Part shown: positions 47,562 to 62,573 of the stretch, one piece after another
How positions within the stretch are numbered: the first letter of the stretch is position 1
Layout: the number at the start of each line of letters is the position of its first letter
NCBI GenBank assembly: GCA_023664305.1
Contig: JAMPFT010000006.1
Span: forward strand, 104,003-168,002
Direction of reading: 5' to 3'
Length of the DNA: 64,000 nucleotides
DNA from: a bacterium
GTDB lineage: Bacteria > Bacillota > Clostridia > Lachnospirales > Lachnospiraceae
Notes under the pieces: model-generated
What the model saw: the letters and a program-made list of their open reading frames with translations, nothing else
Databases searched by the model: none
What the model was told of the DNA's origin: nothing
Position numbers and translations under genes: made by a program

Positions 47562-47978
47562 TTACATCAATATCCCAAAGCCGAGCCTCAGAATGTTCTT
47601 GAATATAAAATTCACACAAATCAGTATGACTCCCACCCAAAGATACCAGTTATGAAATTTCCATCCCCTGATTTTCCCGCGGCTTAACCGGCAAAGCCCT
47701 TGGGAGACCATGAACCCGAGATACATCACTGCCGCGTAGGGCACGAGGGGATGATACCAGACCGCCAAAAGAATCCGTCCGTGCAGCAGGGCCGCCAGCG
47801 CCCTCGTACCGCCGCAGCCCGGGCAGTACATGCCGAATACGGTTGAGAAAACGCAAAATCCTGCCGGAAGGAACTTCCCCGCCAGCCAGACACACGGCAG
47901 GAAGACGGCTGCGGCAACAGGAACAGCCGCCAGCCCTATCAGGAAAAGCTCGTCTTCCAGCGTTTTTACTTTTCTCAT
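47562..47978 (-). CDS. DUF2752 membrane protein
   Basis: A 138-residue protein with three or four hydrophobic segments and the hallmark CPGCGGTRALAALLHG (residues 52-67), typical of DUF2752 proteins of unknown function. Its ATG overlaps the stop of the preceding DUF4190-type gene by four bases, indicating coupled expression. Confidence 0.88.
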   Translation of the reverse strand: MRKVKTLEDELFLIGLAAVPVAAAVFLPCVWLAGKFLPAGFCVFSTVFGMYCPGCGGTRALAALLHGRILLAVWYHPLVPYAAVMYLGFMVSQGLCRLSRGKIRGWKFHNWYLWVGVILICVNFIFKNILRLGFGILM

Positions 47979-48394
47979 CTCAACACATGCATCTGAATAA
48001 AGTAATAGATATCATAGCCCATCTGATCAAGAAGATCCACGAAAGGTCCCGTTCCCTCGTAAAGTCCCTGATACACTCCCACAAACACATAGCCGAAATA
48101 GATCGCCATGATCACGCCGAAGACCGTCGCGATAATCGAACAGATAAGGCCTGCGATACCGATCCCGGAGCCCCTGTTCTTCCTGTTGCCGACAAGGGCC
48201 AGAATCAAACCGATCACTCCTAAAATAAGCCCAAGACCGTAACAGCAGCACGCGGGGATACCGATGATTCCCAATACAAGCCCGGCCACCTGACAGCCGT
48301 TCGCGCCGGAAGGGGCATTGTTCACCGGCGGCTGATACGAAGCATTGGAAGTGTAGTCCTGATAGTTATTCTGTTGATTGTTCTGTCCGTCCAT
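47975..48394 (-). CDS. DUF4190-type membrane protein
   Basis: A 139-residue protein: a Gln/Asn-rich polar N-terminus (about residues 1-32), then two hydrophobic hairpins (GLVLGIIGIPACCCYGLGLIL and GIGIAGLICSIIATVFGVIMA) and a short tail. This is the DUF4190 plan. GGAGGAG eight bases upstream supports the ATG at 48394; upstream in-frame ATGs lie within the promoter leader. Function unknown; paired with the DUF2752 gene. Confidence 0.82.
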   Translation of the reverse strand: MDGQNNQQNNYQDYTSNASYQPPVNNAPSGANGCQVAGLVLGIIGIPACCCYGLGLILGVIGLILALVGNRKNRGSGIGIAGLICSIIATVFGVIMAIYFGYVFVGVYQGLYEGTGPFVDLLDQMGYDIYYFIQMHVLR

Positions 48395-48434
48395 TTTTCT
48401 CTCCTCCGTCATAAAATTCACGAACTTTAAGCTG

Positions 48435-48463
48435 ATTTTATCATAAGGGACCGGCAAATGCAA
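48435..48463 (-). promoter_or_regulatory. Promoter of the DUF4190-DUF2752 pair
   Basis: Minus strand TTGCAT (48458-48463), 17-bp spacer, TAAAAT (48435-48440) with TG before the -10. It overlaps the space just after the large VWA gene. Confidence 0.6.
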
Positions 48464-48484: not shown

Positions 48485-51400
48485 CTACCCGTTTCTCTGG
48501 TCCTTCTTCTTTAAAAGCGCCGAGGTATCCAGACCCTGATTCTCCTTTTTCCCGGCCTTCTCTTTGCGGTTCCTCTTTTTTGCCTTTCCTCCTGCGGACG
48601 GTTCCGCATCCGTTCCCTGTGTATTCCCGCCGTTTTCCGCTGCTTTTCCCGCCGATCCGGCCCTTTGGGAATCCGGATCGGCAGATGTGTCTGCCCTGGC
48701 GCTTCCCGATGCCGCCGCGCTTCCCCCTGCGCCTGCTCCTTTAGCGTTTCTTCTCTCCCGCCAGAACTCACGGAGTCTGCGGTAGAGTCTCGTGTCCTGA
48801 GGCAGGAAATGGAACCTTCTGAAGGCGATATCCAGAACGAAAAGGATGATGGCGGCCAGAATCAGCCATTTCGTCAGCTCGTACCGTTCCCTTGTCCCGC
48901 TCCTTCGCTGTCTCCAGAAATTTTCGTCTTCCTCCAGCAGTCTTCCGTAGCGCTCCACAAAGCTTACGAACCCGGCGGTTCCCACGCCGAACTTATACTC
49001 GTCGGAATACTGCACTACGGCGGCGGTAGTCACCGCGTTCGTCACGTTTTCCCCGTCCAGCCGCCGCACGCTGAGGTTGTAAAAGCCGGTGAGATCCGTA
49101 TTTAGCTTCGCCTCGAACCGTCCCGGCGCCGACGGCTGAAGGGAAACGGTATTTGTGTTTCCTTCCGGATCGGTGTAAACCGCCTCGACCCGGGTCTGCT
49201 CCCCGTAGTCCACGGCATGGTAGACAAGATCCGTGTATCCTCCCGCCGTCGCGACGTCCACGGAGTCCTCGCCGATGGAGGTATTGCCCGCGCTGTAATC
49301 AATCAGGCGTTTCCAGAGCTGCACATAGTCCTCCAGCCCCGCAAAGCCCGCCGTCCACTGATTCGTCACGTCCGTATTCCAGGCCACCGTGTGTCCCAGG
49401 CCGTACTGCATCACCGTGAGAACGGGATCGTCCTTTTCGGAGGCGATCAGCACGCTGGAAGCATTCTTCGGCGTTGCGCTGACATAGCCGTACAGGATGG
49501 GCCAGCCCCCCTCAAACAGTCCCCCGGTGATCTCGCTGCCGCCGTTTACCGCCAGCCCAAACTCGCCGTTCTGCAGATAGGTATCGCCGCTTAAAAATAC
49601 CTCCTGGGCAAATATCCTCGGAATCTCCGACGCTATGTCTGTGTAATAATACCGTCCGCCGCAATTCTCCGCAACCCTCTTTAAGAGTCCGGCCTCTGCG
49701 CCCTCGCCCACGGCCACCGCGGAAAGCGTCACGGAAGCGTCCTGATAGGCGGCGATTACATCGTTATAGTTCCTGCTCTCTCCCTGGCCGTCCGTCAAAA
49801 GGACCACATGCCGGATACTCACGTCGCAGTCCTTCACCTTTGCAAGCGCCTCCCACAGGGCGGGCTGGATCGTGGTTCCGCCGCCGGAAGGGATGCTGTC
49901 AATCAGATCCTTGATCTGCTCCCTGTCCTCCACGGTCGTAGGCTCCACCGCCCAGGAATATTTATCGTCAAAGGTCAGGACCCCTACATAATCCTCGCTC
50001 CGCATCTGATCTACCGCCGTCTTGGCGGCCGTTACGGCCAGATCCAGACTGGTGGCGTCCCCTCCGGTATTGACGCCCATGCTGCCGGAATGGTCGATCA
50101 CCATAATCATGGCCGTCTTGGGGACCTCGTCCACGCCCCTTAACTCCATATCCACGGGCAGCACCGTCTCCAACACGCTCTCCCGGTAGCCGCCCAGGGC
50201 GTAGCTGCTGCGTCCGCCGCAGCAGATCAGTCCGCATCCGTAATCCTTTACATAGGTCTCTATGTTTTTCAGGAATCCATCCGGCAAATCGGAGAGGAAA
50301 ACATTTTCCAGAATAATACTCTTAAATTCCAGCAGTCCGTCCAGCGATTCCGGCGCGTTGGCCGCGGAGACCTTACTGTAATTGCAGCCCGCGGCGCGCA
50401 GAACGGTTTCAAACGGTGCGGTGTCTTCTCCCTTTCCGGAGATCAGAAGAGTCTTGGGCAGGGCGTCCACCACGGAATACGCATGGTAGCCGTTGTTTTC
50501 CTCACAGGTATCTCCCGCCGCCACGACCCTGACCTCAAAGCTCTCGATATTCTCTCCCCTGACCTCCTGGCGGAAACGGAACCGGTTTGTGCCGCGGTTT
50601 AAGTGTACGTCATAGCTTTCCGTCTGTGTGGAGCCCATCCAGATTTGAATCTGGGCGTCGGTATCGTAATTGCTCTCCACCGTCACCGTCATGGAATAAG
50701 CGTCGTTTTGGTACAGATAGCCCGGCAGCTCCACATTTTCCACATAAGCGTCCTGTCCCTGGTACACTTCATAGACCGAGGCGAGCACCTCGATCTGTCT
50801 CGACACCAGCGCGGAGGCCGTATTCGCCAGGTTCCCTTTGGTCTCCTTCCCGTCGGTCAGAATGACAATGCGCCCCGCGCCGTCCCCGGGAATCATGGCC
50901 AAAGCTCTGGATACCGCCTCCTCAAAATTAGTGGCGGACTTATCCGGCAGCGACAAAATCCTCGAAAAACTGTTTTCTCCGGTCAGAAACTGCTCCACCA
51001 GAGAGTTTTTTCCAAAGGTGACAATCCCGTATCGGTTGTCTGCCGGCATCCGGCCGATCGCCTTGTCAAGGTATGCTTCGATCTGCTCCAGATTCTGCTC
51101 GTTGCTGTTGGAGATATCCACCAGAAAAACCGTAGTGTTTACGTTGTCCCGCCTGCTGACGGAAAATCCCGCCAGGGCAAGACAGACAAGCGCCGTCACG
51201 CCGATCCGCACGCCGAAATAAAATTTGCTGCGGCTCCCGCTCTGGCGCACATAAAGAACCCATTCCAGCACAAGCAGGAGCAGGATGAGAACAAGCAGAA
51301 GACTGCGCAGCTGCTTCTTCACCAGCCCCGTATTCTCCGTCGCGGCGGTGGCGGTGCTCTCCGCCACCAAACGGCCGTCCGACTCGCTTTGGGCGGCAAA

Positions 51401-53074
51401 ACGCACCACATACTGCTCCGTGATCCCGTTGGCGTTCACCTCGTACAGCCCCGCCTTATCGGTCCGGGCGGTCAGCCCGTTCACATCGAAATCCGCCTGG
51501 GGATGAAACAGCACCGTATCCCCCGCCTGATAGATATTCCCCGCCAAAAGGGAGGTGTCCCCCAAAAAACGAATGACGTTCGCCATGAAAATCGGAAATT
51601 CCGCCTTTAACGGGAAGTCGGACTCCCGGATGTCAAAGCCCACCGCCACGGTCTTAATGCCGTCGTGCTCCCCGTAATAAGCGGCGCACTCCTCTCCCGC
51701 CCAGAGAAAACCGATCCCCCAGTCCGGAACCTCATAGGTTTTCGTCTCGTTGACGCCTATGGAGAAGGAGGACAGTCCCGACGTCAGATCACACCCCGTC
51801 ACGGTGAGCAGCACACGCTCCGCGGAGCCGGACACCCCGGCTCCGCCGCCGAAGATCAGTCCGCCCTCCTCCGCCTCTCCTCCCGCGTCGTAGATGCGGA
51901 CCGTCTGAGAGTCTTCCTCCGCGTCCTCCGGCCTGACCTTCGTGAGGCTCATCCCCGTCGCCGCCTGATAAGCCTTCTCGATATAAGTATTGCCGTCTCC
52001 TACCAGCACGGCCCGAATCTGCGCCGCCGTGTCAGGGATGGCGTACGCTGCGTTGTCCTGGGCAAGAGAGTCCCCGCTCTCTTCTCCCTCAAACCGGACG
52101 GAGGATACCTCGCTTCGAAGCGGCTCTCCCATCCAGCGGATTTCCTCAAAAAAGCAAAGGGTTGTCTCCCCCGCCCCCAGGGTCAGCCGCCTGATCTCCA
52201 GAAGCCGCCTGCCCTCGTAGAGGCTGATTTCCATGGAAGCGTCCGAATTACTGTAATTAGTCAGGCTGGAGGCGCAGACAATCCTTCTGCCAGACTCCTG
52301 TCCGCTCAAATCCCCGTCCGGGCTTTCCGCTCCGTCCTCCCCGACAGCGTCTTCTTCCGTCACGTCCACATAGGAGAGAAAATTATTCGAAACATTGCTT
52401 ACCGCTTCCCCAATCACGCAGATCTGCGCGTCAAAATAACGGGAGAAGCTCCCGGCATCCTCCGCCCCGTCTGCGTCCGTAAACAGGATCACCTCTGTCT
52501 TCGAGGCGTTTTCCGCCGTCTCCCCGGCCGCGCCCCGCAGTGTCTCCACCACGCTCTCGGCATCCTGTAAGCTGCCGGGCCCGTCGCTGCATTCAATCCG
52601 GTTCAAAACTGCCAGAAGGCTGTTTTTATCCTTTACCCCAACCGCCAGCAGATTGGTTCCCATACAGTCGTTTGTGAGGACGGAAAAGGCGGTCTCCTCC
52701 GAGGAAGACACGATTTCCCTGGCCTGATCCAGCGCCTCCTCCAGACGGCTCCTGCCGTTACCCGTATCATGCTGCATACTGCCGCTGGTATCCAGTATTA
52801 GGATCACATTTCCCCGGTTCCTGCCCTGTCCGTGAAAATACGGGGACATCAGCGAGAGCACGAGAAGCAGCAGAATAAAGATCTGCAGATACATCAGGAT
52901 GTTGTGGATAAATTTCTCCAGAAACGTTTTCGACTGCAGATTTCGAAACAGCTGGTTCCAAAGCAGATTGGAAGAAATCCGATAGTCCTTCCCCCGCGGT
53001 TTTAACAAATATAAAATGATTACCACCGGCACCGTCGCAAGCAGGGCCAGCGGCCATAAGCTCTCAAATATCAT
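48485..53074 (-). CDS. Giant membrane protein with three VWA domains
   Basis: A 1529-residue protein. Residues 5-24 and 58-78 are membrane helices around a BatA-type N-terminus (LKPRGKDYRISSNLLWNQ). VWA-1 has MIDAS motif DTSGS (95-99). Two helices (about 590-607, 621-637) precede VWA-2 (DISNS, 653-657), a glutamine-amidotransferase-like fold (about 870-980, GLICCGGRSSYALGGY) and VWA-3 (DHSGS, 994-998, with GGGTT and LLTDGQG). A last helix (1401-1417) is followed by a Lys/Gly/Ser-rich tail. The first 625 and last 900 residues each look like a complete BatA-like protein, so this is probably a fusion. Last gene of the seven-gene cluster; overlaps the DUF58 gene by 11 bp. Confidence 0.88.
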   Translation of the reverse strand: MIFESLWPLALLATVPVVIILYLLKPRGKDYRISSNLLWNQLFRNLQSKTFLEKFIHNILMYLQIFILLLLVLSLMSPYFHGQGRNRGNVILILDTSGSMQHDTGNGRSRLEEALDQAREIVSSSEETAFSVLTNDCMGTNLLAVGVKDKNSLLAVLNRIECSDGPGSLQDAESVVETLRGAAGETAENASKTEVILFTDADGAEDAGSFSRYFDAQICVIGEAVSNVSNNFLSYVDVTEEDAVGEDGAESPDGDLSGQESGRRIVCASSLTNYSNSDASMEISLYEGRRLLEIRRLTLGAGETTLCFFEEIRWMGEPLRSEVSSVRFEGEESGDSLAQDNAAYAIPDTAAQIRAVLVGDGNTYIEKAYQAATGMSLTKVRPEDAEEDSQTVRIYDAGGEAEEGGLIFGGGAGVSGSAERVLLTVTGCDLTSGLSSFSIGVNETKTYEVPDWGIGFLWAGEECAAYYGEHDGIKTVAVGFDIRESDFPLKAEFPIFMANVIRFLGDTSLLAGNIYQAGDTVLFHPQADFDVNGLTARTDKAGLYEVNANGITEQYVVRFAAQSESDGRLVAESTATAATENTGLVKKQLRSLLLVLILLLLVLEWVLYVRQSGSRSKFYFGVRIGVTALVCLALAGFSVSRRDNVNTTVFLVDISNSNEQNLEQIEAYLDKAIGRMPADNRYGIVTFGKNSLVEQFLTGENSFSRILSLPDKSATNFEEAVSRALAMIPGDGAGRIVILTDGKETKGNLANTASALVSRQIEVLASVYEVYQGQDAYVENVELPGYLYQNDAYSMTVTVESNYDTDAQIQIWMGSTQTESYDVHLNRGTNRFRFRQEVRGENIESFEVRVVAAGDTCEENNGYHAYSVVDALPKTLLISGKGEDTAPFETVLRAAGCNYSKVSAANAPESLDGLLEFKSIILENVFLSDLPDGFLKNIETYVKDYGCGLICCGGRSSYALGGYRESVLETVLPVDMELRGVDEVPKTAMIMVIDHSGSMGVNTGGDATSLDLAVTAAKTAVDQMRSEDYVGVLTFDDKYSWAVEPTTVEDREQIKDLIDSIPSGGGTTIQPALWEALAKVKDCDVSIRHVVLLTDGQGESRNYNDVIAAYQDASVTLSAVAVGEGAEAGLLKRVAENCGGRYYYTDIASEIPRIFAQEVFLSGDTYLQNGEFGLAVNGGSEITGGLFEGGWPILYGYVSATPKNASSVLIASEKDDPVLTVMQYGLGHTVAWNTDVTNQWTAGFAGLEDYVQLWKRLIDYSAGNTSIGEDSVDVATAGGYTDLVYHAVDYGEQTRVEAVYTDPEGNTNTVSLQPSAPGRFEAKLNTDLTGFYNLSVRRLDGENVTNAVTTAAVVQYSDEYKFGVGTAGFVSFVERYGRLLEEDENFWRQRRSGTRERYELTKWLILAAIILFVLDIAFRRFHFLPQDTRLYRRLREFWRERRNAKGAGAGGSAAASGSARADTSADPDSQRAGSAGKAAENGGNTQGTDAEPSAGGKAKKRNRKEKAGKKENQGLDTSALLKKKDQRNG

Positions 53075-54017
53075 AGATCTCCCTTAAATCCTGAAAAATA
53101 AGCTCTCCTCTGTCCTTTCCCGCGTCGCAGAGCACATAGGCTCCGCCGCAGGCCGCACAGCCCTTTTTCATACGTTCCACAAGCTGTCTCAGCTGCCGCT
53201 CGTAGCTGTCTACGGTCTTTGCGTCCACCGTCAGCCGAAGCCTTGAGCCGTTCTCCGCGTCGATCAGGTTATAGGCCCCCGCCAGCGTGACCCGAAGCTC
53301 CTCCGCCGCCAGCGTATGCAGGATCACGGGGCGCTGTCTGCAGTAAATCAGATACCGTAACAGCTTTTCATAGCTCGAAGGCCCCTTCCCTTCCGCCTTT
53401 TCCTGCGCCGTCCGCGCCCTGCCGTCCCGGTTCGTTTTCCCTGCCGCCCCCGGCTCCTCCTCCGGAAGCATATCCGGGTGAAGAAAATCGCTGACAATTA
53501 CCGTCACCCCGGGGCCGTGTCCCTGCATCTGCCGGGCCGCCGACAGCATATCCGTCTCCCCGGAAAATTCCAGCCCCTCCAGCCAGCGGAGTACTCTCGG
53601 AAAGGCATTTTTGCCGCCGCCTGCCGAAAGGCATCTGTTTGGGTCCTTCATGTCATATAAATAGAGCCGGTCCATATTGTTCAGCGCCAGAAAGCTTACC
53701 GCGGCCGCCAGATCCCTCGCCAGCTCCGCCTTGCTCTTTTCGCCGTAGTCCATGGATGCGCTGGTATCCACCAGCACGGAGACGACGGCCTCCTTCTCCT
53801 CCATATACTGCCGGATATAAAGCTTATCCAGTCTCGCGTAGGCGTTCCAGTCCATCCGGCGCAGATCGTCCCCCGGCCTGTACTCACGGAAGTCGGAAAA
53901 CTCCGCGGAGCTTCCCTTTTGCACCGACTTGCGGTTTCCGGTAAGGTTCAGACTGCTCTTATGAGACATATGAAGCTTGAGCCTGGATAAGGTATCGTAA
54001 AATTTTGCGTCAAGCAT
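53064..54017 (-). CDS. DUF58 protein
   Basis: A 317-residue soluble protein. FREYRPGDDLRRMDWNAYARL (residues 43-63) is the DUF58 signature, and DTSASM (84-89) resembles a VWA MIDAS start. Such proteins are encoded next to MoxR ATPases and are thought to be their client or partner. The start overlaps the stop of the moxR gene and the end overlaps the VWA gene, so all three are coupled. Biochemical role not established. Confidence 0.93.
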   Translation of the reverse strand: MLDAKFYDTLSRLKLHMSHKSSLNLTGNRKSVQKGSSAEFSDFREYRPGDDLRRMDWNAYARLDKLYIRQYMEEKEAVVSVLVDTSASMDYGEKSKAELARDLAAAVSFLALNNMDRLYLYDMKDPNRCLSAGGGKNAFPRVLRWLEGLEFSGETDMLSAARQMQGHGPGVTVIVSDFLHPDMLPEEEPGAAGKTNRDGRARTAQEKAEGKGPSSYEKLLRYLIYCRQRPVILHTLAAEELRVTLAGAYNLIDAENGSRLRLTVDAKTVDSYERQLRQLVERMKKGCAACGGAYVLCDAGKDRGELIFQDLREIYDI

Positions 54018-54966
54018 AGAGATTCTTTTCCTTTGCCTCGATGATCCGACGGATTACGTCGTCCTGGGTCACGCCCTCCGATATCGCGTCAAAGCTTAAA
54101 ATCAGCCTGTGGCGCAGTACGGGATAAGCCACGCTCTTTACGTCCTCAAAGGACACGTTCAGCCTGCCCTCCATAAAGGCTCTCGCCCTGGCGGTGCGGA
54201 TCAGCGACTGCGCCGCACGGGGACTCGCACCCTCCCTGATATAGGGATTTTCCCCGTGAGTGGCCATCACAAGCTCCAGAATGTAATCCATGACCGCATC
54301 CGCAATGGGAATCCCGGATACGAGAGCCCTCGCCTTTAAAAGCTCCCCGCCGTTCATCAGACTCCTGATCTGCGGCGGCTGTTCTCCCTCGGTCAGCCCA
54401 ACGATGCCGCGCAGCTCCTCTTTCCCCGGAAACTTTACCAGCACCTTCAGCATAAAACGGTCCAGCTGCGCCTCCGGCAGAGGATAGGTTCCCTCCTGCT
54501 CTATGGGGTTCTGCGTCGCCAGGACTAAAAAAGGCTCCTCCAGGGAATAGCTCTCGCTGCCAACGGTCACGGTGTGCTCCTGCATGGCCTCCAGAAGCGC
54601 CGACTGGGTTTTTGGCGTCGCGCGGTTGATCTCGTCCGCCAGCACAAGATTTGCAAAGACAGGCCCCTTTTGAAAGCGAAAGCTTCCCGCGCCATCCTCC
54701 TTCACCAGGATGTTCGTCCCCGTCACATCGCTGGGCATCAGATCAGGCGTAAACTGAATCCGCTTGAAGGAAAGCAGAAACACCTGGCCGACCGTGCGCA
54801 CCAGCATGGTCTTGCCGAGCCCCGGCATCCCCTCCAGAAGCACGTTTCCTCCCGACAGAAGCGCCAGCATGACCTGCCGGATAATATCTCTCTGTCCGAT
54901 GATCCCTTTCCCGATCTCCCGCTCGCATTCCATTACCTTTTGCTGATAAATTTCATATTCTGACAT
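54010..54966 (-). CDS. MoxR-family AAA+ ATPase
   Basis: A 318-residue AAA+ ATPase, proposed to be a chaperone for assembly of metal-binding or VWA proteins. Walker A GMPGLGKT (46-53), Walker B LVLADEINRA (D111, E112), LEAMQEHTVTV, TQNPIEQEGTYPLPEAQLDRF (the MoxR signature) and a C-terminal lid with ASPRAAQSLIR. AGGAG six bases upstream fixes the ATG at 54966. It lies between the Gly-rich membrane gene (61 bp) and the DUF58 gene (overlap). Confidence 0.95.
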   Translation of the reverse strand: MSEYEIYQQKVMECEREIGKGIIGQRDIIRQVMLALLSGGNVLLEGMPGLGKTMLVRTVGQVFLLSFKRIQFTPDLMPSDVTGTNILVKEDGAGSFRFQKGPVFANLVLADEINRATPKTQSALLEAMQEHTVTVGSESYSLEEPFLVLATQNPIEQEGTYPLPEAQLDRFMLKVLVKFPGKEELRGIVGLTEGEQPPQIRSLMNGGELLKARALVSGIPIADAVMDYILELVMATHGENPYIREGASPRAAQSLIRTARARAFMEGRLNVSFEDVKSVAYPVLRHRLILSFDAISEGVTQDDVIRRIIEAKEKNLYA

Positions 54967-55027
54967 TGCGTTCTCCTCGCTTATTCCTTTTTCACGACAA
55001 CCGAAATCTCTGCGAAGCACAAACCTG

Positions 55028-56392
55028 TCATTGGCTTCCCGGCTTGTTCAGACTCTCAAAGTAATCCCGGATGACGGATTCCATTCCGTTCGGGTACTTG
55101 CCTGTGGCAATGCCCTCGTAGGCGTTGTCCGTATATTCCCCGATCACGGTGTCATAATCCACATGCTCCCCTTCCCAGGCCAGACCGTTCTGTCTGCGGT
55201 AATACTCGGAATCCTGATCGCCGCTTTTGTCGCCTGTCAGGGAAGCGTCGTTTCCCACCCCGTTCGGCACGCTGACGTAATCGCGCTCCGCGTTGCTGCT
55301 CCCGGTGCCCCGCCCGGGGGCGTTTCCGTTACCCTGACCCTGTCCGAAGCCCTGACCGCTTCCCTCGCCGCCGCTTCCGTCACCCTGGCCGTCGCCGTTT
55401 CCGCTTCCCTGGCCCTGGCCCTCGCCGCCGCTTCCGCTTCCCTGACCCTGCCCCGAGCCCTGACCGCTTCCCTCGCCGGAACCGTCTCCGTCTCCTTCGC
55501 CGTCTTCTCCGCTGCCTTCCTGCTTTTCACCGCCGTCACCGCTTCCCGCCGTCCCAGAGGAGGCCGTCTGCTGTCCTCTTTTGTTTGCGGCAGCTTTGGC
55601 AAACGCCTGCGCCGCGGCAAGGCCCGCGTTCTCCTGATTTTCCGTCTGCGAGGCAAGGGACGCCAGCGACTGCGCCGTCTGGCCGTATTTATAGTCCAGC
55701 TTCTCCAGCGCCGTATCCAGGCTTTCCCAGGAATCGGCCCTTTCCAGCTCCTCCCCGGAAAGCTTCATGGCCTCTAAAAGCTCCTGAAGCTGCGCCCGTT
55801 CCTCCTCCGTCAGGCTTTCCATGTCGATTTTTTCCATGGCCTCCAAAAGCTCCTCCAGCTTCTCCTTCTCTTCCTCCGCCTGCTCCCGCACCTCATGCAG
55901 GAGCTCTGCCTGCTCCCGCACGGGGGAGGGAACCAGGCAAAGCGCCCCTGTCACGGCAGCCGCAAGAAGAAACGCACAAAGATGCCTTTTGTCCGGAAGA
56001 AGCGGGATTTTAATCTGTTCCCGGATTCTGTCATAATGACGGACCGCGTCTTCCCGCTGCAAAACGGCAAATTCCTTCTCGCTGTCAATCTGTTCCCAGG
56101 CGGTAATCATCCGCTCCTTCAGCCCGAAGGAATCCAGCTTTCCCGCAGCCCGCCTCATATCCGCCCGCCGGTACACAGCGCAGCCGATTCCGGCCGCAAA
56201 ACCTGCCGCAAAGCAAATCCCCGCCGCCAGATGCGCATGATAAAAGGGCCGGATCAGGGACCAGACCTCACAAAAGATCCCGAAGATCCCGCCTGCCGCC
56301 GCAAACAGGATCCCACTGTCTAAAATCTTTGCAATATTCAGCTTCCGTCTGCATTTTCGAATCTGCTCCGTCAGGTATCTCCTGCTGTCCAT
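55028..56392 (-). CDS. Three-helix membrane protein with Gly/Ser/Asp-rich repeat region
   Basis: A 454-residue protein. Membrane helices are at about 22-42, 54-74 and 137-155; a coiled coil rich in Glu and Leu occupies about 157-255. Residues about 275-370 are a Gly, Ser, Asp, Gln-rich run of short repeats (GSGQGQGSG). The last 60 residues (YTDNAYEGIATGKYPNGM) look ordered. The plan recalls DUF4175-type proteins found with MoxR/DUF58 systems, but I cannot confirm the family. It follows the permease gene by five bases. Confidence 0.75.
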   Translation of the reverse strand: MDSRRYLTEQIRKCRRKLNIAKILDSGILFAAAGGIFGIFCEVWSLIRPFYHAHLAAGICFAAGFAAGIGCAVYRRADMRRAAGKLDSFGLKERMITAWEQIDSEKEFAVLQREDAVRHYDRIREQIKIPLLPDKRHLCAFLLAAAVTGALCLVPSPVREQAELLHEVREQAEEEKEKLEELLEAMEKIDMESLTEEERAQLQELLEAMKLSGEELERADSWESLDTALEKLDYKYGQTAQSLASLASQTENQENAGLAAAQAFAKAAANKRGQQTASSGTAGSGDGGEKQEGSGEDGEGDGDGSGEGSGQGSGQGQGSGSGGEGQGQGSGNGDGQGDGSGGEGSGQGFGQGQGNGNAPGRGTGSSNAERDYVSVPNGVGNDASLTGDKSGDQDSEYYRRQNGLAWEGEHVDYDTVIGEYTDNAYEGIATGKYPNGMESVIRDYFESLNKPGSQ

Positions 56393-56397
56393 ACGCC

Positions 56398-57327
56398 TTA
56401 CCTCTTAGGTTTTTTCTGCTTTCTGCCACGGATGGGATTAATCCGCCTTGCAGCCAGGGCCAAAAACAGAAGTGACACCGCCACAAACAGGATTGTGGAA
56501 AAGATGAGCCACCGGTTGCCTGTCGCGATATAGCGGATCGGCCCGCTGATCCGGCGGTAGCTTGTGCCGCTGGCGATAGCGTCTACCACCGACTGTCCCG
56601 TCATGATCTGCCCGAAAAATTCCGTCAGGTACACCGCGGGATTCAGCAAAAGAAACAGAGCCCAGTTTTCCCCGTAGCTGTTCAGGGTCGTCTGCGTCAC
56701 GCCGTTATAGGTATAATAGCGCATATTCTCCGTCAGATTATAGATCAGGTAAGGCAGAAAGGTGACCACAAAGAACACCAGATAAAAGCCGTAGGACAAA
56801 ATCACCGCGCTGATCGTCTTTTTACAGAGGGAGGAGCACAAAATTCCGATGCTGGCCGCAAAGAGCGACACCAGAAGCGCCACGCCCAGAAACAGGAACA
56901 GATAGCTCCAGGACATGCCCCCGATGATGAAGCACAGCGCCATGATCGGCATACTCGCCACCACAAAAAACATACTCTGGACGATGGCCGTCATCACCTT
57001 GCCCAGCACCACCGCAAAGGGCGTCATAGAGGTCGTCATCATGATATCAAAGGTCTGGCGCTCCTTCTCTCCCGAGATGGAGGAGGCCGTCCGCACCGGC
57101 ACCACCACGCCTAAGATTACCAGCTGGGACACGGCCAGGATGGGGTACAGCCACACCATATAGCTGTAAATGTTTTCGGTGGAATACCTTCTCTCCTGTC
57201 CGATGATGAACATGGCAAAGAAAAAGATCAGCGCCAGAATCAGTTCGTAAAAGAACACGCCCAGACACATTTTTATGCTGCGGGCCTGTACCCGCACATC
57301 CTTTTTAACGATGGGATTCAGCTGCAT
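56398..57327 (-). CDS. ABC-2 type transporter permease
   Basis: A 309-residue permease with about six helices, beginning MQLNPIVKKDVRVQAR and containing GEKERQTFDIMMTTSMTPFAVVLGK, the typical coupling-helix segment of NosY/YhaP-like ABC-2 permeases. AGAAGG precedes the ATG at 57327, which lies within the end of the ATPase gene (23-bp overlap). It forms an exporter with that ATPase. Substrate unknown; in this cluster it may move a partner of the secreted protein, but that is inference. Confidence 0.92.
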   Translation of the reverse strand: MQLNPIVKKDVRVQARSIKMCLGVFFYELILALIFFFAMFIIGQERRYSTENIYSYMVWLYPILAVSQLVILGVVVPVRTASSISGEKERQTFDIMMTTSMTPFAVVLGKVMTAIVQSMFFVVASMPIMALCFIIGGMSWSYLFLFLGVALLVSLFAASIGILCSSLCKKTISAVILSYGFYLVFFVVTFLPYLIYNLTENMRYYTYNGVTQTTLNSYGENWALFLLLNPAVYLTEFFGQIMTGQSVVDAIASGTSYRRISGPIRYIATGNRWLIFSTILFVAVSLLFLALAARRINPIRGRKQKKPKR

Positions 57328-58270
57328 TTTCCTTCTCTCCCTTCTGCTCTTTGTCATCCTCCGTGACGCGCATGAACAGCGTCTCCAGATTGCCCTCCTG
57401 CTTGTGGAAGCCCGTCACCACCACGTCGTTGGCGATCATTGTGCCGATCATCTTCGCGATTTCCTGCTTCGTCATGGTGTGGGACAGCCGGATCTCATTC
57501 TCGCCCACGGATTCTATCTTTACCTTCGCGTGCTCGTTGGCGATCCGCACCGCCGTGTCCCGGCCTTCCTCCAGGGTGACGATCAGGCGGTTGCTGCCGA
57601 ACACCCCTTCCATCACATCCTCGATTTTACCCGCCGCCACAAGGTTTCCGTGATCCATGATACCGATGCTGTTGCACATCTCCGACAGCTCCGAGAGAAT
57701 GTGGGAGCTGATCACAATGGTCTTTCCCATGCTCTTCAGATTCAAAAGCAGCTCCTTCATCTCCACTCTCGCCCTGGGGTCCAGCCCGGAATTGGGCTCG
57801 TCCAGCACCAACAGGACAGGATTGTGGATCAGCGCCCTCGCCACGCAGAGACGCTGCTTCATCCCTCTCGACAGGGTATCCACAAAAACCTCCTTTTTGT
57901 CGGACAGATTCACCAGCTCCAGAAGATCGTCTGCTATTTTCCCGATCTCCCTCGAATTCATACGGTACATGGAGCCGTAAAAATCCATGTACTCCTTAAC
58001 CTTCAGATTGTCATAGACCCCGAAAAAGTCCGGCACATAGCCGATCTGTCTGCGCAGCTGCCTCTGGTGCCTGAGCGCGTCCACGCCGTTGATCCGGATA
58101 CTCCCGGCGTTTGGAAGCATCAGTCCGCACACCATGCGGATGGTCGTCGTCTTGCCCGCGCCGTTTGGCCCCACGAAGCCGAACAGATCGCCCTTGGGAA
58201 TGTGAAGCGTCAGATCGCTGACAGCCTGAAACTTACCGTAGCTTTTATATAAATGATCGATTTGAAGCAT
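57305..58270 (-). CDS. ABC transporter ATP-binding protein
   Basis: A 321-residue CcmA-type ATPase: Walker A GPNGAGKTTTIRMVCGL, Q-loop VPDFFGVYDNLKVKEYMDFY, signature LSRGMKQRLCVARAL and Walker B VLLVLDEPNSGLD. The C-terminal extension (about 230-321) is common in ATPases partnered by ABC-2 permeases. GGGAGGAG precedes the ATG at 58270; upstream in-frame sequence is not coding. The gene follows the secreted-protein gene by 22 bp. Confidence 0.95.
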   Translation of the reverse strand: MLQIDHLYKSYGKFQAVSDLTLHIPKGDLFGFVGPNGAGKTTTIRMVCGLMLPNAGSIRINGVDALRHQRQLRRQIGYVPDFFGVYDNLKVKEYMDFYGSMYRMNSREIGKIADDLLELVNLSDKKEVFVDTLSRGMKQRLCVARALIHNPVLLVLDEPNSGLDPRARVEMKELLLNLKSMGKTIVISSHILSELSEMCNSIGIMDHGNLVAAGKIEDVMEGVFGSNRLIVTLEEGRDTAVRIANEHAKVKIESVGENEIRLSHTMTKQEIAKMIGTMIANDVVVTGFHKQEGNLETLFMRVTEDDKEQKGEKENAAESHR

Positions 58271-58292
58271 TCCGCTCCTCCCTTCTCCCGTC

Positions 58293-60323
58293 CTAATCCA
58301 TATTCGCATAGGAATAGAAACAGCCGTAAGACACCTCGCTGCACTTTCCCGCCACAGCCTTTTCATAATCCGCCGCGACGCCCACAATCACCGCCTGTGA
58401 CTGAGACGGATTCTTTTCGACGGCGCTTCCAAGCCCGATGAACAGAGCCGCCATGCAGCTGCGGTCATAGCTTTCCGTCTGCGTCCAGTAATTGAATACC
58501 ATACTGCTCAGCAGGTTGCTGTAGTCGTAGTCAAAGGATCCGTTCGCCGTATCCTGATAGACGCGTCTGCCGTCTGCGACGGCCTGCGACAAGTCCAGCT
58601 CTTCTCCCGCTTTGACATCCGAAAAAACCGCAATTCCGGAATTATACCAGACTGCCATATAATCCAGATCAAGACCCGTCTCATTCCGAACCGTTCCCGT
58701 CAGATTCTGTCCGAAATGCGACAGTCCGACTCCCTGCAGATTCCCTCTGCCCTGTGTCCTTCCGCCGGCGTAGAGATAAGCGTTTTCAAAGTTTTCCTGA
58801 GGCTTGATTCCCATGAAAACACCTTCCGCGGCCTCCCGCACGGTATAGAGGTAGTCGCTCACGTTCGTCGAATTACTCCAATAGCCGTATCCGGTCAGCC
58901 CGGGTCCCGCCACACTGTAGCTGTCGTCCAGCAAAAGCTCCCAGGATTTCACTCCCGCCTGATAGGCCAGAAAATAAGTATCCCTCCAGGTGCTGTCCGT
59001 CTGCTGGACCGCAACGGAATACACCTTTGGCTCTCTCACCCGGACGTCCCTGCCGAAGAAGTAGACCCCCAGGATAAACACAAGCCCCATAACCGGGACC
59101 CCCGCCCAGTACCACTCGCTTTTCTTACATTTGCGCAGGATCAGATACAGAATCGGTCCCACCAAAACGACGTATACTCCGATCAGCACCTCCAGCCAGG
59201 TGAAATCCAGATCTGTCTGTCTGTTATCCAGAAAGGCAAGGGCCCTCTGTCCCGTATACTGCAGACTGTCATAGTAGGTACTGTAGGTTCTGTAGCTGTC
59301 TGAGGTATACATGACATCCGAAAACATATTCTGCACGGCGTACCCGTCCATCTTTTGAAGCTCCTTCTCGCCAAAGGAAAAAAGAAAGACTCCCACCGCG
59401 CCGTCTCCGACATCCCCGAGCAGGACCGGGTTATCGCTGCTTTCCCGATAGACGCGCTGGCTGGTATACTCCAGCGAGGCGATAGCCATCTGCGTAAAAT
59501 CCACTTCCCAGTCCTGATAATAATAATAGAATCCGTAATTCTCCATTTCCGCGGAGACAAGATTTTCTTCCCCGGGCTGGCTGATCTCCAGAATGTTCAG
59601 CGCCAGGAAATCCTCCGAGAATCCGGAGAGCGTCTGTTCCGCATAGGCTCCTGTGCCGATCAGAAGCCAGCCGCCGTTCTCCACCCACTTCTGGATCGCC
59701 TGAATGCTCTCCCCGTCCAAAGACGCCACGTTAAACTGATCGATCACCAGAAAATACAGGCCGTCCAGCTGCTGCTTCAGGTTGTCGCCGTTTAACTCGA
59801 CGAGGCTTAAAGGCATATTGACCGCGCCCCTGATGGAAAAATTCTCCCCGCCCGCGTCCAGCCAGGTAAGGTCGGCGTAATTGTCGGACAGAATACCGAC
59901 GGAAATACCGTTCGCCGTGCTGCCGAACACGTTTTTTAACTGAAGCGACTGCAAAAGCCGCCCCTTCTGATCCAGAAAATTCAGCGCGCAGAGTCCCCGG
60001 ACCGTCTCTGCGGCCTGCTCCGTCACGGTTATCGTAAACTGCTTCTTCCCCCGGGACGGCAGCGTAATATCCGTATTGTAGGCACAGTTTTGAAACCCGT
60101 TGCTGGCAAAGATCACCTGCACCGTGCCCGTAAAATCTTCTCCGTCGTTCTGTACCGTCACCTGCATGACATAATTGCCGTTTTCCTGCTTGAGCAGCCC
60201 GACGCTTCCAAAAAGCGTGTCTACCATGCCTTCGTCCGCGGCGGCAGCCCGCGCCGCGCCTCCCGTCCACAGTAAAGCCACGCAAAACAACAGGAGCAGT
60301 CCGGCCGTAATTTTTCTCCGCAT
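58293..60323 (-). CDS. Secreted membrane-anchored protein of the MoxR/ABC cluster
   Basis: A 676-residue protein I do not recognise as a named family. A signal peptide (1-29) is followed by a beta-rich region (about 50-135, GNYVMQVTVQNDGEDFTG), then a fold like a type-1 glutamine-amidotransferase (188-225, DGLYFLVIDQ...WVENGGWLLIGTG) without an evident catalytic Cys, then two membrane helices (about 376-397 and 406-424) and a long C-terminal domain. The amidotransferase-like part resembles that in the giant VWA protein encoded by the last gene of the cluster. First gene of the cluster. Confidence 0.75.
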   Translation of the reverse strand: MRRKITAGLLLLFCVALLWTGGAARAAAADEGMVDTLFGSVGLLKQENGNYVMQVTVQNDGEDFTGTVQVIFASNGFQNCAYNTDITLPSRGKKQFTITVTEQAAETVRGLCALNFLDQKGRLLQSLQLKNVFGSTANGISVGILSDNYADLTWLDAGGENFSIRGAVNMPLSLVELNGDNLKQQLDGLYFLVIDQFNVASLDGESIQAIQKWVENGGWLLIGTGAYAEQTLSGFSEDFLALNILEISQPGEENLVSAEMENYGFYYYYQDWEVDFTQMAIASLEYTSQRVYRESSDNPVLLGDVGDGAVGVFLFSFGEKELQKMDGYAVQNMFSDVMYTSDSYRTYSTYYDSLQYTGQRALAFLDNRQTDLDFTWLEVLIGVYVVLVGPILYLILRKCKKSEWYWAGVPVMGLVFILGVYFFGRDVRVREPKVYSVAVQQTDSTWRDTYFLAYQAGVKSWELLLDDSYSVAGPGLTGYGYWSNSTNVSDYLYTVREAAEGVFMGIKPQENFENAYLYAGGRTQGRGNLQGVGLSHFGQNLTGTVRNETGLDLDYMAVWYNSGIAVFSDVKAGEELDLSQAVADGRRVYQDTANGSFDYDYSNLLSSMVFNYWTQTESYDRSCMAALFIGLGSAVEKNPSQSQAVIVGVAADYEKAVAGKCSEVSYGCFYSYANMD

Positions 60324-60460
60324 AGCCCTCTTTTCCTTTCCGCAAATTCATTTGACACGGTCTGCCGCCTCCCGGCATCCGGGCAGACTGACAGATTATA
60401 TTTATGATAACACGCCTTGTCCGCAATGTCCCGCAAAATCTCTAAATAAACTTTAAGATT

Positions 60461-60901
60461 TTATAAAATGTCCGTCTCCCCGAACAGGTCCCCCTCCAGG
60501 GAAAAGATATGTTCTATGGGCAGAACCGTCCCGTCCGCAAACAAAAGCTCGCGCCGATATCCTTCAATCCGCTTTGCCTTTCCCTGTTTTGTCCGATAGG
60601 CGCCGCCGCTTTTCCTCTCGTCCGCCTCAAAGTAAGTAACCGTTATCTCCTGCTCTCCGTCCTCCAGCCGCCTGCCCAGAAAGGAAAGCCTCCGGTCCAG
60701 CCATTCCTTCCTGTCCTCGTCCAGCTCTGCAAACGCCTCCGTCCGCCGCTCCGTCTCCCGGATCGCCGCCTCATGCCCCGTGAGCGCCGCAAAGGGCGAA
60801 AACTGCGCGGCCCTGTCCGCGAGCGGCATCTGCGGGTGATTTTTCGAGACATGCCGCGGCAGATTTATGATATCGTCATATTTATGGCTTCCGTTATCCA
60901 T
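60461..60901 (-). CDS. YolD-like protein
   Basis: A 146-residue protein with the YolD-family opening YDDIINLPRHVSKNHPQMPLADRAAQFSPFAALTGHEAAI. YolD-like proteins are commonly paired with Y-family polymerases of the UvrX type; here it lies 11 bp after such a gene and should be co-transcribed. The molecular role is not established, so a link to lesion bypass is by association. Confidence 0.88.
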   Translation of the reverse strand: MDNGSHKYDDIINLPRHVSKNHPQMPLADRAAQFSPFAALTGHEAAIRETERRTEAFAELDEDRKEWLDRRLSFLGRRLEDGEQEITVTYFEADERKSGGAYRTKQGKAKRIEGYRRELLFADGTVLPIEHIFSLEGDLFGETDIL

Positions 60902-60912
60902 TCATAAACCTC

Positions 60913-62442
60913 CTATGCTTTATGTCCTCCGATCTGGCGGTTGCGTTCCATGGTTGTGGCTCCCTCCTGCAGATCCGTCCCTTTCAGGATGGCATTTTTG
61001 CCGTACTTTTTCTTGACGGACAGCATAGCCTCCTGAAGCTTCCTCTCCCTGGCAAGCTTTTCCTCTTCCGCCTTTTTCTCCTTCTCCAAAGCGTCGTAAT
61101 CCGTAAACAAATCCAGCTGCTCGAAGCTTTCCTCCTTCCGGGCCGCGCTCTCATCCGTCAGCCGGTTTGCCGCCACCGTTATCCGCCGCACCAAAAGTCC
61201 CGGATCCACAATCCGGTCGTACAGCTCCATGACGGCGTCCAGAATCACCCGGGTGGAGGAGGTAGGCGATTTCAGGTTTACGGTTCCGTGGGCATGCTTC
61301 GGCACCTTTCTTCCGTAGCGGTCTACCGTAACCTCTCCCCGATAGCTGTCCCGGATCCGCGCATCGGTCAGATTATCGACGTCATACCCCACGGTGAGCA
61401 CCATCTGATCCGTCACCACCCGCTTCTCCACCAGGTCCAGGACCAATAAATCCGCCATCTCCCGCACAATCACCCGCGCCTTTTCAAAGTCATAAGGGCA
61501 CTGCAGCACCTGTCCGGAGCTGATGCTGCTCGTCTCCGGCCTGTAGGCCTTGATCAGATCCATGGTCACAGGCTCCCAGCCCCAGGCATGGTCTATGAGA
61601 AGCTCCGCGTTGACCCCGAACATTTTGTACAAAAGCTCCTCGTTATAGTAATCGCCGTCCCCGCCCAGAGAACAGCGGGCGATATCTCCCATGGTAAAAA
61701 GCCCCGCCTCCTCCAGCTTCTTTTGATATCCATGCCCCACTCTCCAGAAATCCGTCAGCGGCCTGTGATCCCATAAAAGCCGCCGATAACTCATCTCGTT
61801 TAGCTGTCCGATCCGAACGCCGTTTTGATCCGGCGCGGCATGCTTTGCCACAATATCCATGGCCGCCTTGCTAAGATACAGATTTGTGCCGATTCCCGCG
61901 GCGGCGGTGATTCCCGTGACCTCGAAAACCTCCCGGATCATCTTGCTCGCCAGCTCCTTTGCCGACATCCTGTAGGTATCCAGATAGTCGGTCACATCCA
62001 GAAACACCTCATCGATGGAATAGACATGCATGTCCTCCGGCGCGATATATTTCAGGTAGACGTCATAGATCACCGTGCTGTATTCCACATAAAGAGCCAT
62101 ACGGGGCGTCGCCGTGATATAGGCCGCCTCCAGCTCCGGATGTTCCTTAAGCTCCGGTGCCTGAAAAGAAGAGCCGCTAAAACGCTGCCCCGGCGCATGT
62201 AAAAGCCGCCCGGCATTGACCTCCCTCACCCTCCTGCTCACCTCAAACAGCCTTGCCCTACCCGGGATCCCGTAGGCCTTCAGCGAAGGAGAAACCGCAA
62301 GGCAGATCGTCTTCTCCGTCCGCTCCGCGTCCGCCACCACCAGATTGGTCGTCAGGGGATTCAGCTTCCGCTCCACACACTCCACCGATGCGTAAAAAGA
62401 TTTCAGATCGATTGCCACATAGGTACGCTGCCGTTCTCCCAT
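60913..62442 (-). CDS. Y-family DNA polymerase (UvrX/ImuB-like lesion-bypass type)
   Basis: A 509-residue translesion polymerase. DLKSFYASVECVERKLNP (near residue 10) gives the first catalytic acidic residue and the SFYASVE motif, and YSIDEVFLDVTDYLD gives the second pair. The little-finger and C-terminal region (about 230-420) is conserved in type, with a charged tail ending KYGKNAILKGTDLQEGATTMERNRQ. GGGG precedes the ATG at 62442. A promoter with an overlapping LexA-like site lies upstream, consistent with SOS control. Length exceeds DinB (about 350-420), favouring the UvrX type. Confidence 0.92.
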   Translation of the reverse strand: MGERQRTYVAIDLKSFYASVECVERKLNPLTTNLVVADAERTEKTICLAVSPSLKAYGIPGRARLFEVSRRVREVNAGRLLHAPGQRFSGSSFQAPELKEHPELEAAYITATPRMALYVEYSTVIYDVYLKYIAPEDMHVYSIDEVFLDVTDYLDTYRMSAKELASKMIREVFEVTGITAAAGIGTNLYLSKAAMDIVAKHAAPDQNGVRIGQLNEMSYRRLLWDHRPLTDFWRVGHGYQKKLEEAGLFTMGDIARCSLGGDGDYYNEELLYKMFGVNAELLIDHAWGWEPVTMDLIKAYRPETSSISSGQVLQCPYDFEKARVIVREMADLLVLDLVEKRVVTDQMVLTVGYDVDNLTDARIRDSYRGEVTVDRYGRKVPKHAHGTVNLKSPTSSTRVILDAVMELYDRIVDPGLLVRRITVAANRLTDESAARKEESFEQLDLFTDYDALEKEKKAEEEKLARERKLQEAMLSVKKKYGKNAILKGTDLQEGATTMERNRQIGGHKA

Positions 62443-62551
62443 AGTCTGTCCCCTTTCCGCCGCGGCCTTAGCCGCCCGATTCTTTCTATCCGCCGCAAAA
62501 TTCCCGCAAGCTGAAACGCGTCCCTGACACTGAAAAGCTGCGTCTGAAAAC

Positions 62552-62573
62552 ATTATAACAGAAAATGTGTTCG
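62552..62573 (-). promoter_or_regulatory. Promoter and LexA-like box of the Y-family polymerase
   Basis: On the minus strand the -10 TATAAT is at 62552-62557. Just upstream, CGAAC-ACAT-TTTCT (62560-62573) matches 8 of 10 positions of CGAAC-N4-GTTCG, with one half-site perfect, placing a repressor between the -10 and -35. The -35 (near 62575-62580) is weak. Confidence 0.55.

What the first reader, a model, noticed from the sequence alone, without database searches (positions are those of the whole stretch)
48485..60323. Seven-gene MoxR / ABC exporter / triple-VWA membrane system
A secreted anchored protein, an ABC-2 ATPase and permease, a three-helix Gly/Ser-rich protein, MoxR, DUF58 and a giant triple-VWA protein form a tight operon (gaps of 61 bp or less, four junctions of 5 bp or less or overlapping). 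The parts are each known, but coupling an exporter to the MoxR-DUF58-VWA module with two proteins bearing amidotransferase-like folds suggests an assembly machine for envelope or surface structures whose role I cannot name.
Basis: inference. Interest (0 to 1): 0.75.

Follow-up and report, generated by a model that had tools for sequence, protein, structure and literature searches.

The report
Conserved seven-gene cell-envelope machine
Seven neighbouring bacterial genes seem to encode one membrane machine, with two ATP-burning motors inside the cell and large binding domains outside; the same set recurs in the same order in distant bacteria and is kept even where the cluster has broken up, but its task is unknown.

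Summary
In detail: seven co-directional genes (60323-48485, minus strand), packed as described. The grouping is not accidental. Of 56 relatives of the giant VWA gene with enough upstream DNA, 49 carry the other six genes in the same order. In 118 genomes of the window's class, G4 occurs in 17 and G7b in 16, 16 shared. Where the operon is broken, the parts are kept: MoxR-DUF58 elsewhere in 5 of 5 genomes; a G1-G5/G6-G7 split in 4 of 4 carriers of one family. The same order occurs in 8 of 20 Chloroflexota loci. The giant protein is a fusion of two genes; its third VWA sits inside a GATase-like fold whose cysteine is not conserved. G4 and G7 end in conserved tips. Best reading: a Gld-like ABC module coupled to a MoxR/DUF58 remodelling module on a shared cell-surface complex, serving envelope upkeep. 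Contacts, export, substrate and role are inferred. Ten full-text searches found no description of the set.

The parts
58293..60323 (-). G1, 676 aa: signal peptide, beta-sandwich domain, GATase1/IFT52-like domain, TM hairpin (about 377-425), C-terminal mainly beta domain outside; GldG/DUF4350-like
   Evidence: (DUF4350 in 11 of 35 relatives, DUF7408 in 12 of 35; no family in the window protein itself)
59301..59906 (-). G1 residues 140-341, GATase1-like fold, no cysteine at the elbow
57305..58270 (-). G2, 321 aa: ABC ATPase (DrrA/GldA-like); Walker A, signature and Walker B intact
   Evidence: (TIGR01188 238.5 bits, TIGR03522 GldA 212.5 bits, both below their cut-offs)
56398..57357 (-). G3: ABC-2 type permease, six predicted TM; start at 57357 (319 aa) or 57327 (309 aa)
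55028..56392 (-). G4, 454 aa: three TM, charged helical stretch, Gly/Ser-rich linker, conserved C-terminal tip
55040..55174 (-). G4 C-terminal tip (about residues 407-451): V416, Y420, A424, P434, Y444, F445 invariant in 33 of 33 aligned
54010..54966 (-). G5, 318 aa: MoxR AAA+ ATPase
53064..54017 (-). G6, 317 aa: DUF58 protein without predicted TM, VWA MIDAS (DxSxS)
   Evidence: D, S, S each in 73 of 73
48485..53074 (-). G7, 1529 aa: fusion of BatA-VWA1 (G7a) and VWA2-[GATase-like with VWA3 inside] (G7b), five predicted TM, cytosolic tail
52460..53074 (-). G7 BatA N-terminal TM hairpin and VWA1
   Evidence: D95 and S99 in 40 of 40; 97 is S in 36 and T in 4
50705..51136 (-). G7 VWA2, MIDAS D653 S655 S657 T715 D741
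   Evidence: D, S, S, D in 26 of 26; 715 is T in 23 and S in 3
49283..50464 (-). G7 GATase-like domain (residues 871-1264) with VWA3 inserted (about 985-1169; MIDAS D994 S996 S998 T1067 D1095, 26 of 26)
48491..48532 (-). G7 cytosolic C-terminal motif LDTSALLKKKDQRN, a short helix predicted at low confidence after a disordered linker
   Evidence: (pLDDT 51-60)
60395..60423 (-). promoter-like site upstream of G1 (CGGACA-17-TATAAT, 10 of 12); weak evidence, 9 such sites found in the region against 5.8 expected

Best explanation
The seven proteins work as one envelope machine with two cytosolic motors. G2-G3 with the anchored surface protein G1 form an ABC module of the GldA-GldF-GldG kind that passes the energy of ATP (or a cargo) across the membrane. 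G5 (MoxR ring) with G6 (DUF58, a soluble VWA adaptor) forms a remodelling chaperone that acts on the membrane scaffold G7, probably by gripping its conserved cytosolic tail. Outside, the metal-binding VWA domains and the probably non-catalytic GATase-like domains of G7 and G1 serve as binding surfaces, one of which probably holds the conserved tip of the tethered protein G4. The cycle assembles, opens or takes apart this surface complex, in the upkeep of the cell envelope. Shown: the set is conserved, co-occurs and is kept when dispersed; domain folds; intact ATPase and MIDAS motifs; conserved tips. Inferred: all contacts, the division of labour between the two motors, any transport, and the envelope role.
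For: Gene order conserved in 49 of 56 testable relatives and in 8 of 20 Chloroflexota loci. In 118 genomes of the window's class: G4 and G7b both in 16, G4 only in 1 (cut by a contig end), G7b only in 0, neither in 101; Fisher p = 7e-19, not corrected for kinship. Dispersal with retention in two ways: G5-G6 elsewhere in 5 of 5 genomes, with G5 profile scores of 498-509 against at most 377 for the seven other-type MoxR genes that were scored; G1-G5 and G6-G7 apart in 4 of 4 carriers in family f20, and apparently the same break in the genome of L091. Walker motifs of G2 and G5 and the MIDAS of G6 and of VWA1-3 are invariant or nearly so. The positive-inside rule puts the VWA/GATase domains, the G1 domains and the G4 tip outside and the G7 tail inside. 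Published principle: in NorQD the VWA MIDAS is likely to bind the target and the MoxR ring drives remodelling (PMC9976466, passages). A related archaeal set (DUF4350/GldG-like + MoxR + secreted VWA) was predicted to be a secretion or membrane-remodelling complex (PMC5898192, section 3.2 read). The R. leguminosarum operon RL3499-RL3502 affects envelope integrity and morphology (as cited in PMC3893208 and PMC5700661, passages; the original is not held).
Against: No contact was tested. G1-G3 occur without the rest in many Lachnospiraceae (23 of 33 G1 loci show no G4-G7 downstream, some of them on short contigs), and G4-G7 occur without G1-G3 in 4 of 20 Chloroflexota loci, so the two halves can exist alone. 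L138's genome has G4-G7 but no G1 match. The aspartate of the G7 tail is D in only 13 of 26, so binding of the tail by the G6 MIDAS is a guess, and some relatives lack the tail motif. The tail's LL-K core is partly kept where G5-G6 are not adjacent, so its partner could be another protein. In G106 the locus has in-frame stops and lacks G5 and G6, and the two MoxR genes scored there are of another type.
Confidence: 0.5

Rival explanations
1. A dedicated ABC exporter (G1-G3) for one unknown lipid, glycan or peptide, with G4-G7 as a maturation factor for that exporter only; no mechanical machine.
For: G2 scores best with a daunorubicin-exporter-type model (TIGR01188, 238.5 bits, cut-off 312.45). 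The G1-G3 trio without G4-G7, behind a two-component pair, is common in Lachnospiraceae (histidine kinase upstream in 24 of 33 G1 loci; family calls for one pair).
Against: No flanking gene family is found in more than 19 of 80 loci, so no conserved cargo or synthesis gene was seen. G4-G7 also occur without G1-G3 (4 of 20 Chloroflexota loci; L138).
Confidence: 0.25
2. A sporulation-stage machine of endospore formers (engulfment, coat or cortex).
For: Spo0A in 17 of 17 carriers and SpoIVA in 16 of 17. In the four f20 carriers the G1-G5 block lies within about 5-13 kb of spo0A (positions).
Against: Not significant against the background (Spo0A p = 0.13, SpoIVA p = 0.07); 74 of 101 non-carriers also have a SpoIVA match. 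The full order occurs in Chloroflexota; that these form no endospores is general knowledge, not tested. The spo0A closeness was noticed in one family only.
Confidence: 0.08
3. A biological-conflict (anti-phage) system like the MoxR-vWA ternary systems.
For: MoxR-vWA pairs are the core of such systems (PMC7159879, passages and section 8).
Against: No variable effector was seen; content and order are stable. PADLOC gives 13 hits for the ABC ATPase (best mad3 7.5e-28), one weak hit for MoxR (DolB 8.3e-5) and one for G4 (LmuB 8.3e-4), none for G1, G3, G6, G7. bpMoxR matches only at 1.3e-9 against 7e-63 for AAA_3.
Confidence: 0.04
4. Two independent operons side by side (G1-G3 and G4-G7), co-inherited but not acting together.
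For: Each half occurs alone.
Against: The same order and tight spacing in two phyla. The breaks seen do not follow the G3|G4 border: they fall at G5|G6, or take out G5-G6 and leave G1-G4 with G7.
Confidence: 0.1

Closest known systems
Predicted arCOG01314 (DUF4350/GldG-like) - MoxR - vWA secretion/membrane-remodelling complex of archaea (PMC5898192)
   Same: GldG-like extracytoplasmic protein, MoxR ATPase and secreted VWA protein in one operon; mostly membrane or surface parts.
   Different: In the section and table read no ABC ATPase/permease pair, DUF58 or G4-like protein is listed; Ig-like and S-layer-like proteins are.
Bat (Bacteroides aerotolerance) operon and Rhizobium cmdABCD (RL3499-RL3502)
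   Different: As described Bat loci also carry BatD, TPR and SH3 domains; no ABC module is mentioned in the passages read. The original Rhizobium paper was not read.
GldA-GldF-GldG ABC transporter of gliding Bacteroidota
   Same: ATPase, permease and an anchored protein with a GATase/flavodoxin-type domain.
   Different: Scores far below the GldA and GldF cut-offs (212.5 against 402.6; 18.8 against 288.5); different G1 architecture; tied here to MoxR-DUF58-VWA.
NorQ-NorD, RavA-ViaA, CoxD-CoxE MoxR/VWA chaperones
   Same: MoxR with a VWA partner of intact MIDAS.
   Different: Those are described as acting on particular enzymes; here the pair is tied to a membrane scaffold and an ABC module. RavA profile 47 bits against a cut-off of 681.

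Membership tests
GldAFG gliding ABC transporter | ATPase over the GldA equivalog cut-off | tested here: not met
   TIGR03522 212.5 bits, cut-off 402.6
GldAFG gliding ABC transporter | permease over the GldF equivalog cut-off | tested here: not met
   TIGR03518 18.8 bits, cut-off 288.5
GldAFG gliding ABC transporter | third subunit of the GldG / ABC_transp_aux fold | tested here: inconclusive
   ABC_transp_aux in 1 of 35 G1 relatives at E 0.035, DUF4350 in 11 of 35; GATase/IFT52-like fold in the model
Archaeal DUF4350-MoxR-vWA complex (PMC5898192) | DUF4350 protein, anchored, large domain outside | tested here: inconclusive
   DUF4350 hits in 11 of 35 relatives, not in the window protein; signal peptide plus a TM hairpin rather than one C-terminal TM
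Archaeal DUF4350-MoxR-vWA complex (PMC5898192) | MoxR ATPase and VWA protein in the operon | tested here: met
Archaeal DUF4350-MoxR-vWA complex (PMC5898192) | pfam07760 membrane proteins with Ig-like domain | tested here: not met
   no pfam07760 among the Pfam hits (E up to 0.1) of the seven proteins
Bat operon | MoxR, DUF58 and BatA N-terminal domain with VWA | tested here: met
   AAA_3, DUF58, BatA 36.5 bits over 25.9
Bat operon | BatD and TPR (BatC/E) proteins | tested here: not met
   none among the Pfam hits of the seven proteins and the two downstream neighbours
MoxR-vWA ternary conflict systems | third conserved component (VMAP, iSTAND, FtsH or beta-propeller) with variable effectors | tested here: not met
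   no such domain by Pfam in the seven proteins; PADLOC; content stable over loci
GATase1 enzymes | conserved cysteine at the nucleophile elbow | tested here: not met
   G7 position 951: A 10, C 6, M 5, I 2, V 2, F 1; 952: T 8, V 6, I 5, S 3, C 2, A 2, of 26. The window protein has C at both, so its own activity is not excluded. G1 consensus GTG
RavA | MoxR protein over the RavA equivalog cut-off | tested here: not met
   NF010054 47 bits, cut-off 681
cmdABCD operon of Rhizobium leguminosarum | gene-by-gene homology and envelope phenotype | not tested
   known here only through citing papers; original not held

The most novel reading that the evidence does not exclude
A previously undescribed, cross-phylum dual-motor envelope machine, in which an ABC ATPase/permease and a MoxR AAA+ ring work on one membrane-spanning scaffold, with docking by short conserved tips: the G7 tail inside to the AAA+ side, and the G4 tip outside to VWA/GATase-like domains.
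Probability: 0.4. Interest if true: 0.82.

Novelty: new variant of a known kind. Interest (0 to 1): 0.64.

Why it matters
MoxR-DUF58-VWA operons are widespread and, as far as the papers seen here tell, the DUF58 protein and the target are often unknown. Here the module is tied by order, co-occurrence and retention after dispersal to a defined ABC transporter and a small tethered protein, so its target becomes a short list that can be tested. If the dual-motor reading holds, it adds an envelope machine, present in Lachnospiraceae, Clostridium, Paenibacillus and Chloroflexota, in which an AAA+ and an ABC motor share one complex.

Tried and rejected
Defence system: the PADLOC scan gave 13 hits for the ABC ATPase, one weak hit each for MoxR and G4, none for the other four; taken as generic and rejected. 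Sporulation: Spo0A and SpoIVA are not significantly more frequent in carriers; left open at low weight. Chance grouping: rejected. A conserved partner gene outside the seven: clustering of flanking ORFs of the 80 loci gave one cluster in 19 loci (response-regulator-like proteins) and the next in 6. G1 by sequence against solved structures: no hit. Homology for G4: Pfam hits of single members are scattered (TrAA12 in 7 of 33, best 1.4e-4; DUF4175 in 2 of 33, best 0.0054; one Collagen hit of 1.3e-8 on the Gly-rich stretch). The structure comparison of the G7 C-terminal part is filled by VWA and GATase rows; VWA2 and the beta parts were hardly tested. Foldseek's own top rows for G1 have low TM-scores (0.18 or less against the whole query). 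A tree of G2 (70 rows) places the two dispersed groups apart and the two-component trios among Lachnospiraceae, but its root is by midpoint and lies on one very long row (L058), so I drew no conclusion on which state is older. A paper on Anaerolineaceae (PMC10937449, passages) lists a MoxR and a VWA protein among proteins found only in thermophiles; whether they belong to this set was not checked.
Full report
WHAT IS THERE. The window lies in a genome (G000) whose nearest named relatives in the G7 scan are called Lachnospiraceae. Seven minus-strand genes run from 60323 down to 48485: G1 secreted/anchored protein, G2 ABC ATPase, G3 ABC-2 permease, G4 three-TM protein, G5 MoxR, G6 DUF58, G7 giant VWA protein. 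Junctions: +22, -53 (or -23), +5, +61 (or +7), -8, -11 bp. The likely starts have purine-rich stretches upstream. A promoter-like site lies before G1, but such sites are common by chance in the region.

ARE THE SEVEN ONE UNIT? Of 56 loci with at least 7.8 kb upstream of G7, 49 have G1-G2-G3-G4-G5-G6 in order on the same strand before it: 46 exact, two with extra G1 copies (L074, L107), one with G4 in two frames (L080). The seven exceptions are L091, L127, L135, L137, L138, L141 and L147. L127 appears to be the same contig as L051 (both 247986 bases long), where G1-G4 are present before a 5 kb insert. L147 is cut at a contig end. (b) In 118 genomes of the window's class (searched with a completeness filter of 90%), G7b matches with E under 1e-100 occur in 16 and G4 matches with E under 1e-50 in 17; 16 are shared; the 17th, G161, has G4 at a contig end. 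Fisher p = 7e-19, without correction for kinship. (c) Loci of the 16 carriers other than the window's genome: all seven together in 9 (in G212 G4 is interrupted and G1 is cut by the stretch fetched), dispersed in 4, cut by contig ends in 2 (G161, G175), and decayed in 1 (G106: in-frame stops, no G5/G6 at the locus).

BROKEN BUT KEPT. In L135, L137, L139 and L141 G4 is followed by G7a-G7b without G5-G6; L136 begins at G7a, so what precedes it is not seen. In all five genomes one MoxR far above the other matches sits on another contig, with a DUF58 gene beside it. Their G5 profile scores are 498-509 and G6 scores 271-290; six MoxR genes of other type, in G000, G106, G212 and G225, score 270-354 (G5) and their neighbours 16-37 (G6), and one in G222 with no G6 hit scores 377 (some weaker-ranked MoxR genes were not scored). 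In the four f20 genomes that have the system (a fifth searched, G152, has neither G4 nor G7b) the break is at G5|G6: G1-G5 in one place and G6-G7a-G7b in another, about 330 kb apart in the single-contig genome G221. The genome of L091 seems to have the same break, with G4 divided by contig ends. Retention after different breaks is, in my view, better evidence for joint function than order alone.

HOW FAR IT REACHES. Named holders of the full order include Clostridium, Paenibacillus and Saccharibacillus records. In 151 genomes of the phylum of L142's genome (record title: Chloroflexi), 65 have a G7b-type protein at E up to 1e-60. Of 20 loci fetched, 8 have G1-G2-G3-G4-G5-(G6)-G7a-G7b in order (in L197 no G6 frame was seen, in L210 it is in two frames), 4 have G4-G7 without G1-G3, and 8 have G7b with or without G7a. 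A Verrucomicrobia record (L147) has G4-G7 at a contig end, and G1-G2 lie on another contig of that genome. The titles 'Calditrichales' (L133) and 'Muribaculum' (L116) look wrong, since both rows fall among Clostridia in the G2 tree.

THE TWO HALVES. In 100 genomes of the window's family G1 is found in 33, the window's own included. Of 33 G1 loci examined from the other 32 genomes, 10 show G4 or more downstream; 24 have a histidine kinase upstream, among them 3 of the 10 (Pfam confirms regulator and kinase in L041). So the ABC trio also exists alone behind a two-component pair, and in Chloroflexota G4-G7 exist without it. The system is best seen as two modules that are joined in most of the close relatives found.

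HOW IT MOST LIKELY WORKS. The ATPase motifs of G2 and G5 and the MIDAS of G6 are kept, so both motors should run. By the positive-inside rule the G7 tail and the G1 and G4 loops are inside, and the G1 domains, the G7 VWA/GATase domains and the G4 tip are outside; G2, G5 and G6 have no predicted TM. In NorQD the VWA MIDAS is likely to bind the target and the MoxR ring drives remodelling (PMC9976466, passages). By analogy G5-G6 should act on a cytosolic handle of the scaffold, best the G7 tail, while the outer VWAs hold a partner, for which the G4 tip is the best candidate; the ABC module G1-G3 would couple to the same complex. Each contact is inference. Role: envelope upkeep, from the reported phenotype of the Rhizobium MoxR operon (as cited) and from topology.

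COMPARED WITH WHAT IS KNOWN. The parts are known kinds. The nearest described combination is the predicted archaeal DUF4350-MoxR-vWA complex (PMC5898192), for which the section and table read list no ABC pair, DUF58 or G4. The set is not GldAFG (cut-offs not met), not a full Bat operon and not a conflict system. Ten full-text searches of the open library found no description of the whole set (listings, with passages read in six papers and sections in two of them); most subscription journals are not in that library, and Snider and Houry 2006, which classified MoxR operons, was not read.

On re-reading the calls I corrected four points: the window protein itself has cysteines at the GATase elbow; the f20 count is 4 of 4 carriers, not of all members; G1 of G212 is cut by my fetch, not interrupted; and the PADLOC hits are given in full.

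Noticed in passing
L036 (own genome, contig C41, about 7 kb before the window start): A second MoxR gene of another type (G5 score about 317, neighbour G6 score about 16), with one-TM and six-TM neighbours that have no Pfam hit at 1e-5.
   Followed up: partly
L038-L070: G1-G2-G3 trios without G4-G7 sit behind a response regulator and histidine kinase in many Lachnospiraceae loci: a separate two-component/ABC system.
   Followed up: partly
L169, L171, L173, L175 (family f20): The G1-G5 block lies within about 5-13 kb of spo0A in four of four carriers; probably shared ancestry, but worth a look.
   Followed up: no
L074, L107: Extra copies of G1 in front of the seven genes.
   Followed up: no
L051 (= L127), L105, L081: One to several kb lie between G4 and G5; in L051 (5 kb) the stretch holds a radical SAM and a peptidase S51 gene.
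   Followed up: partly
L178 (G106), L177 (G212): In-frame stops in G4 and G7b (G106) and in G4 (G212) in one genus: decay or sequencing error.
   Followed up: partly
L116, L133: Record titles 'Muribaculum' and 'Calditrichales' look wrong; both rows group with Clostridia.
   Followed up: partly
window 47562-48463: Two small membrane proteins downstream of the operon on the same strand: DUF2752 (1.4e-16) and a weak MpPF26/DUF4190-like match; no match to them appeared in the relatives.
   Followed up: partly
window 60461-62553: Y-family DNA polymerase (IMS) with a 146-aa gene between it and the operon on the same strand; that gene has no Pfam hit at 1e-5 (it resembles YolD-type proteins, recalled).
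   Followed up: partly
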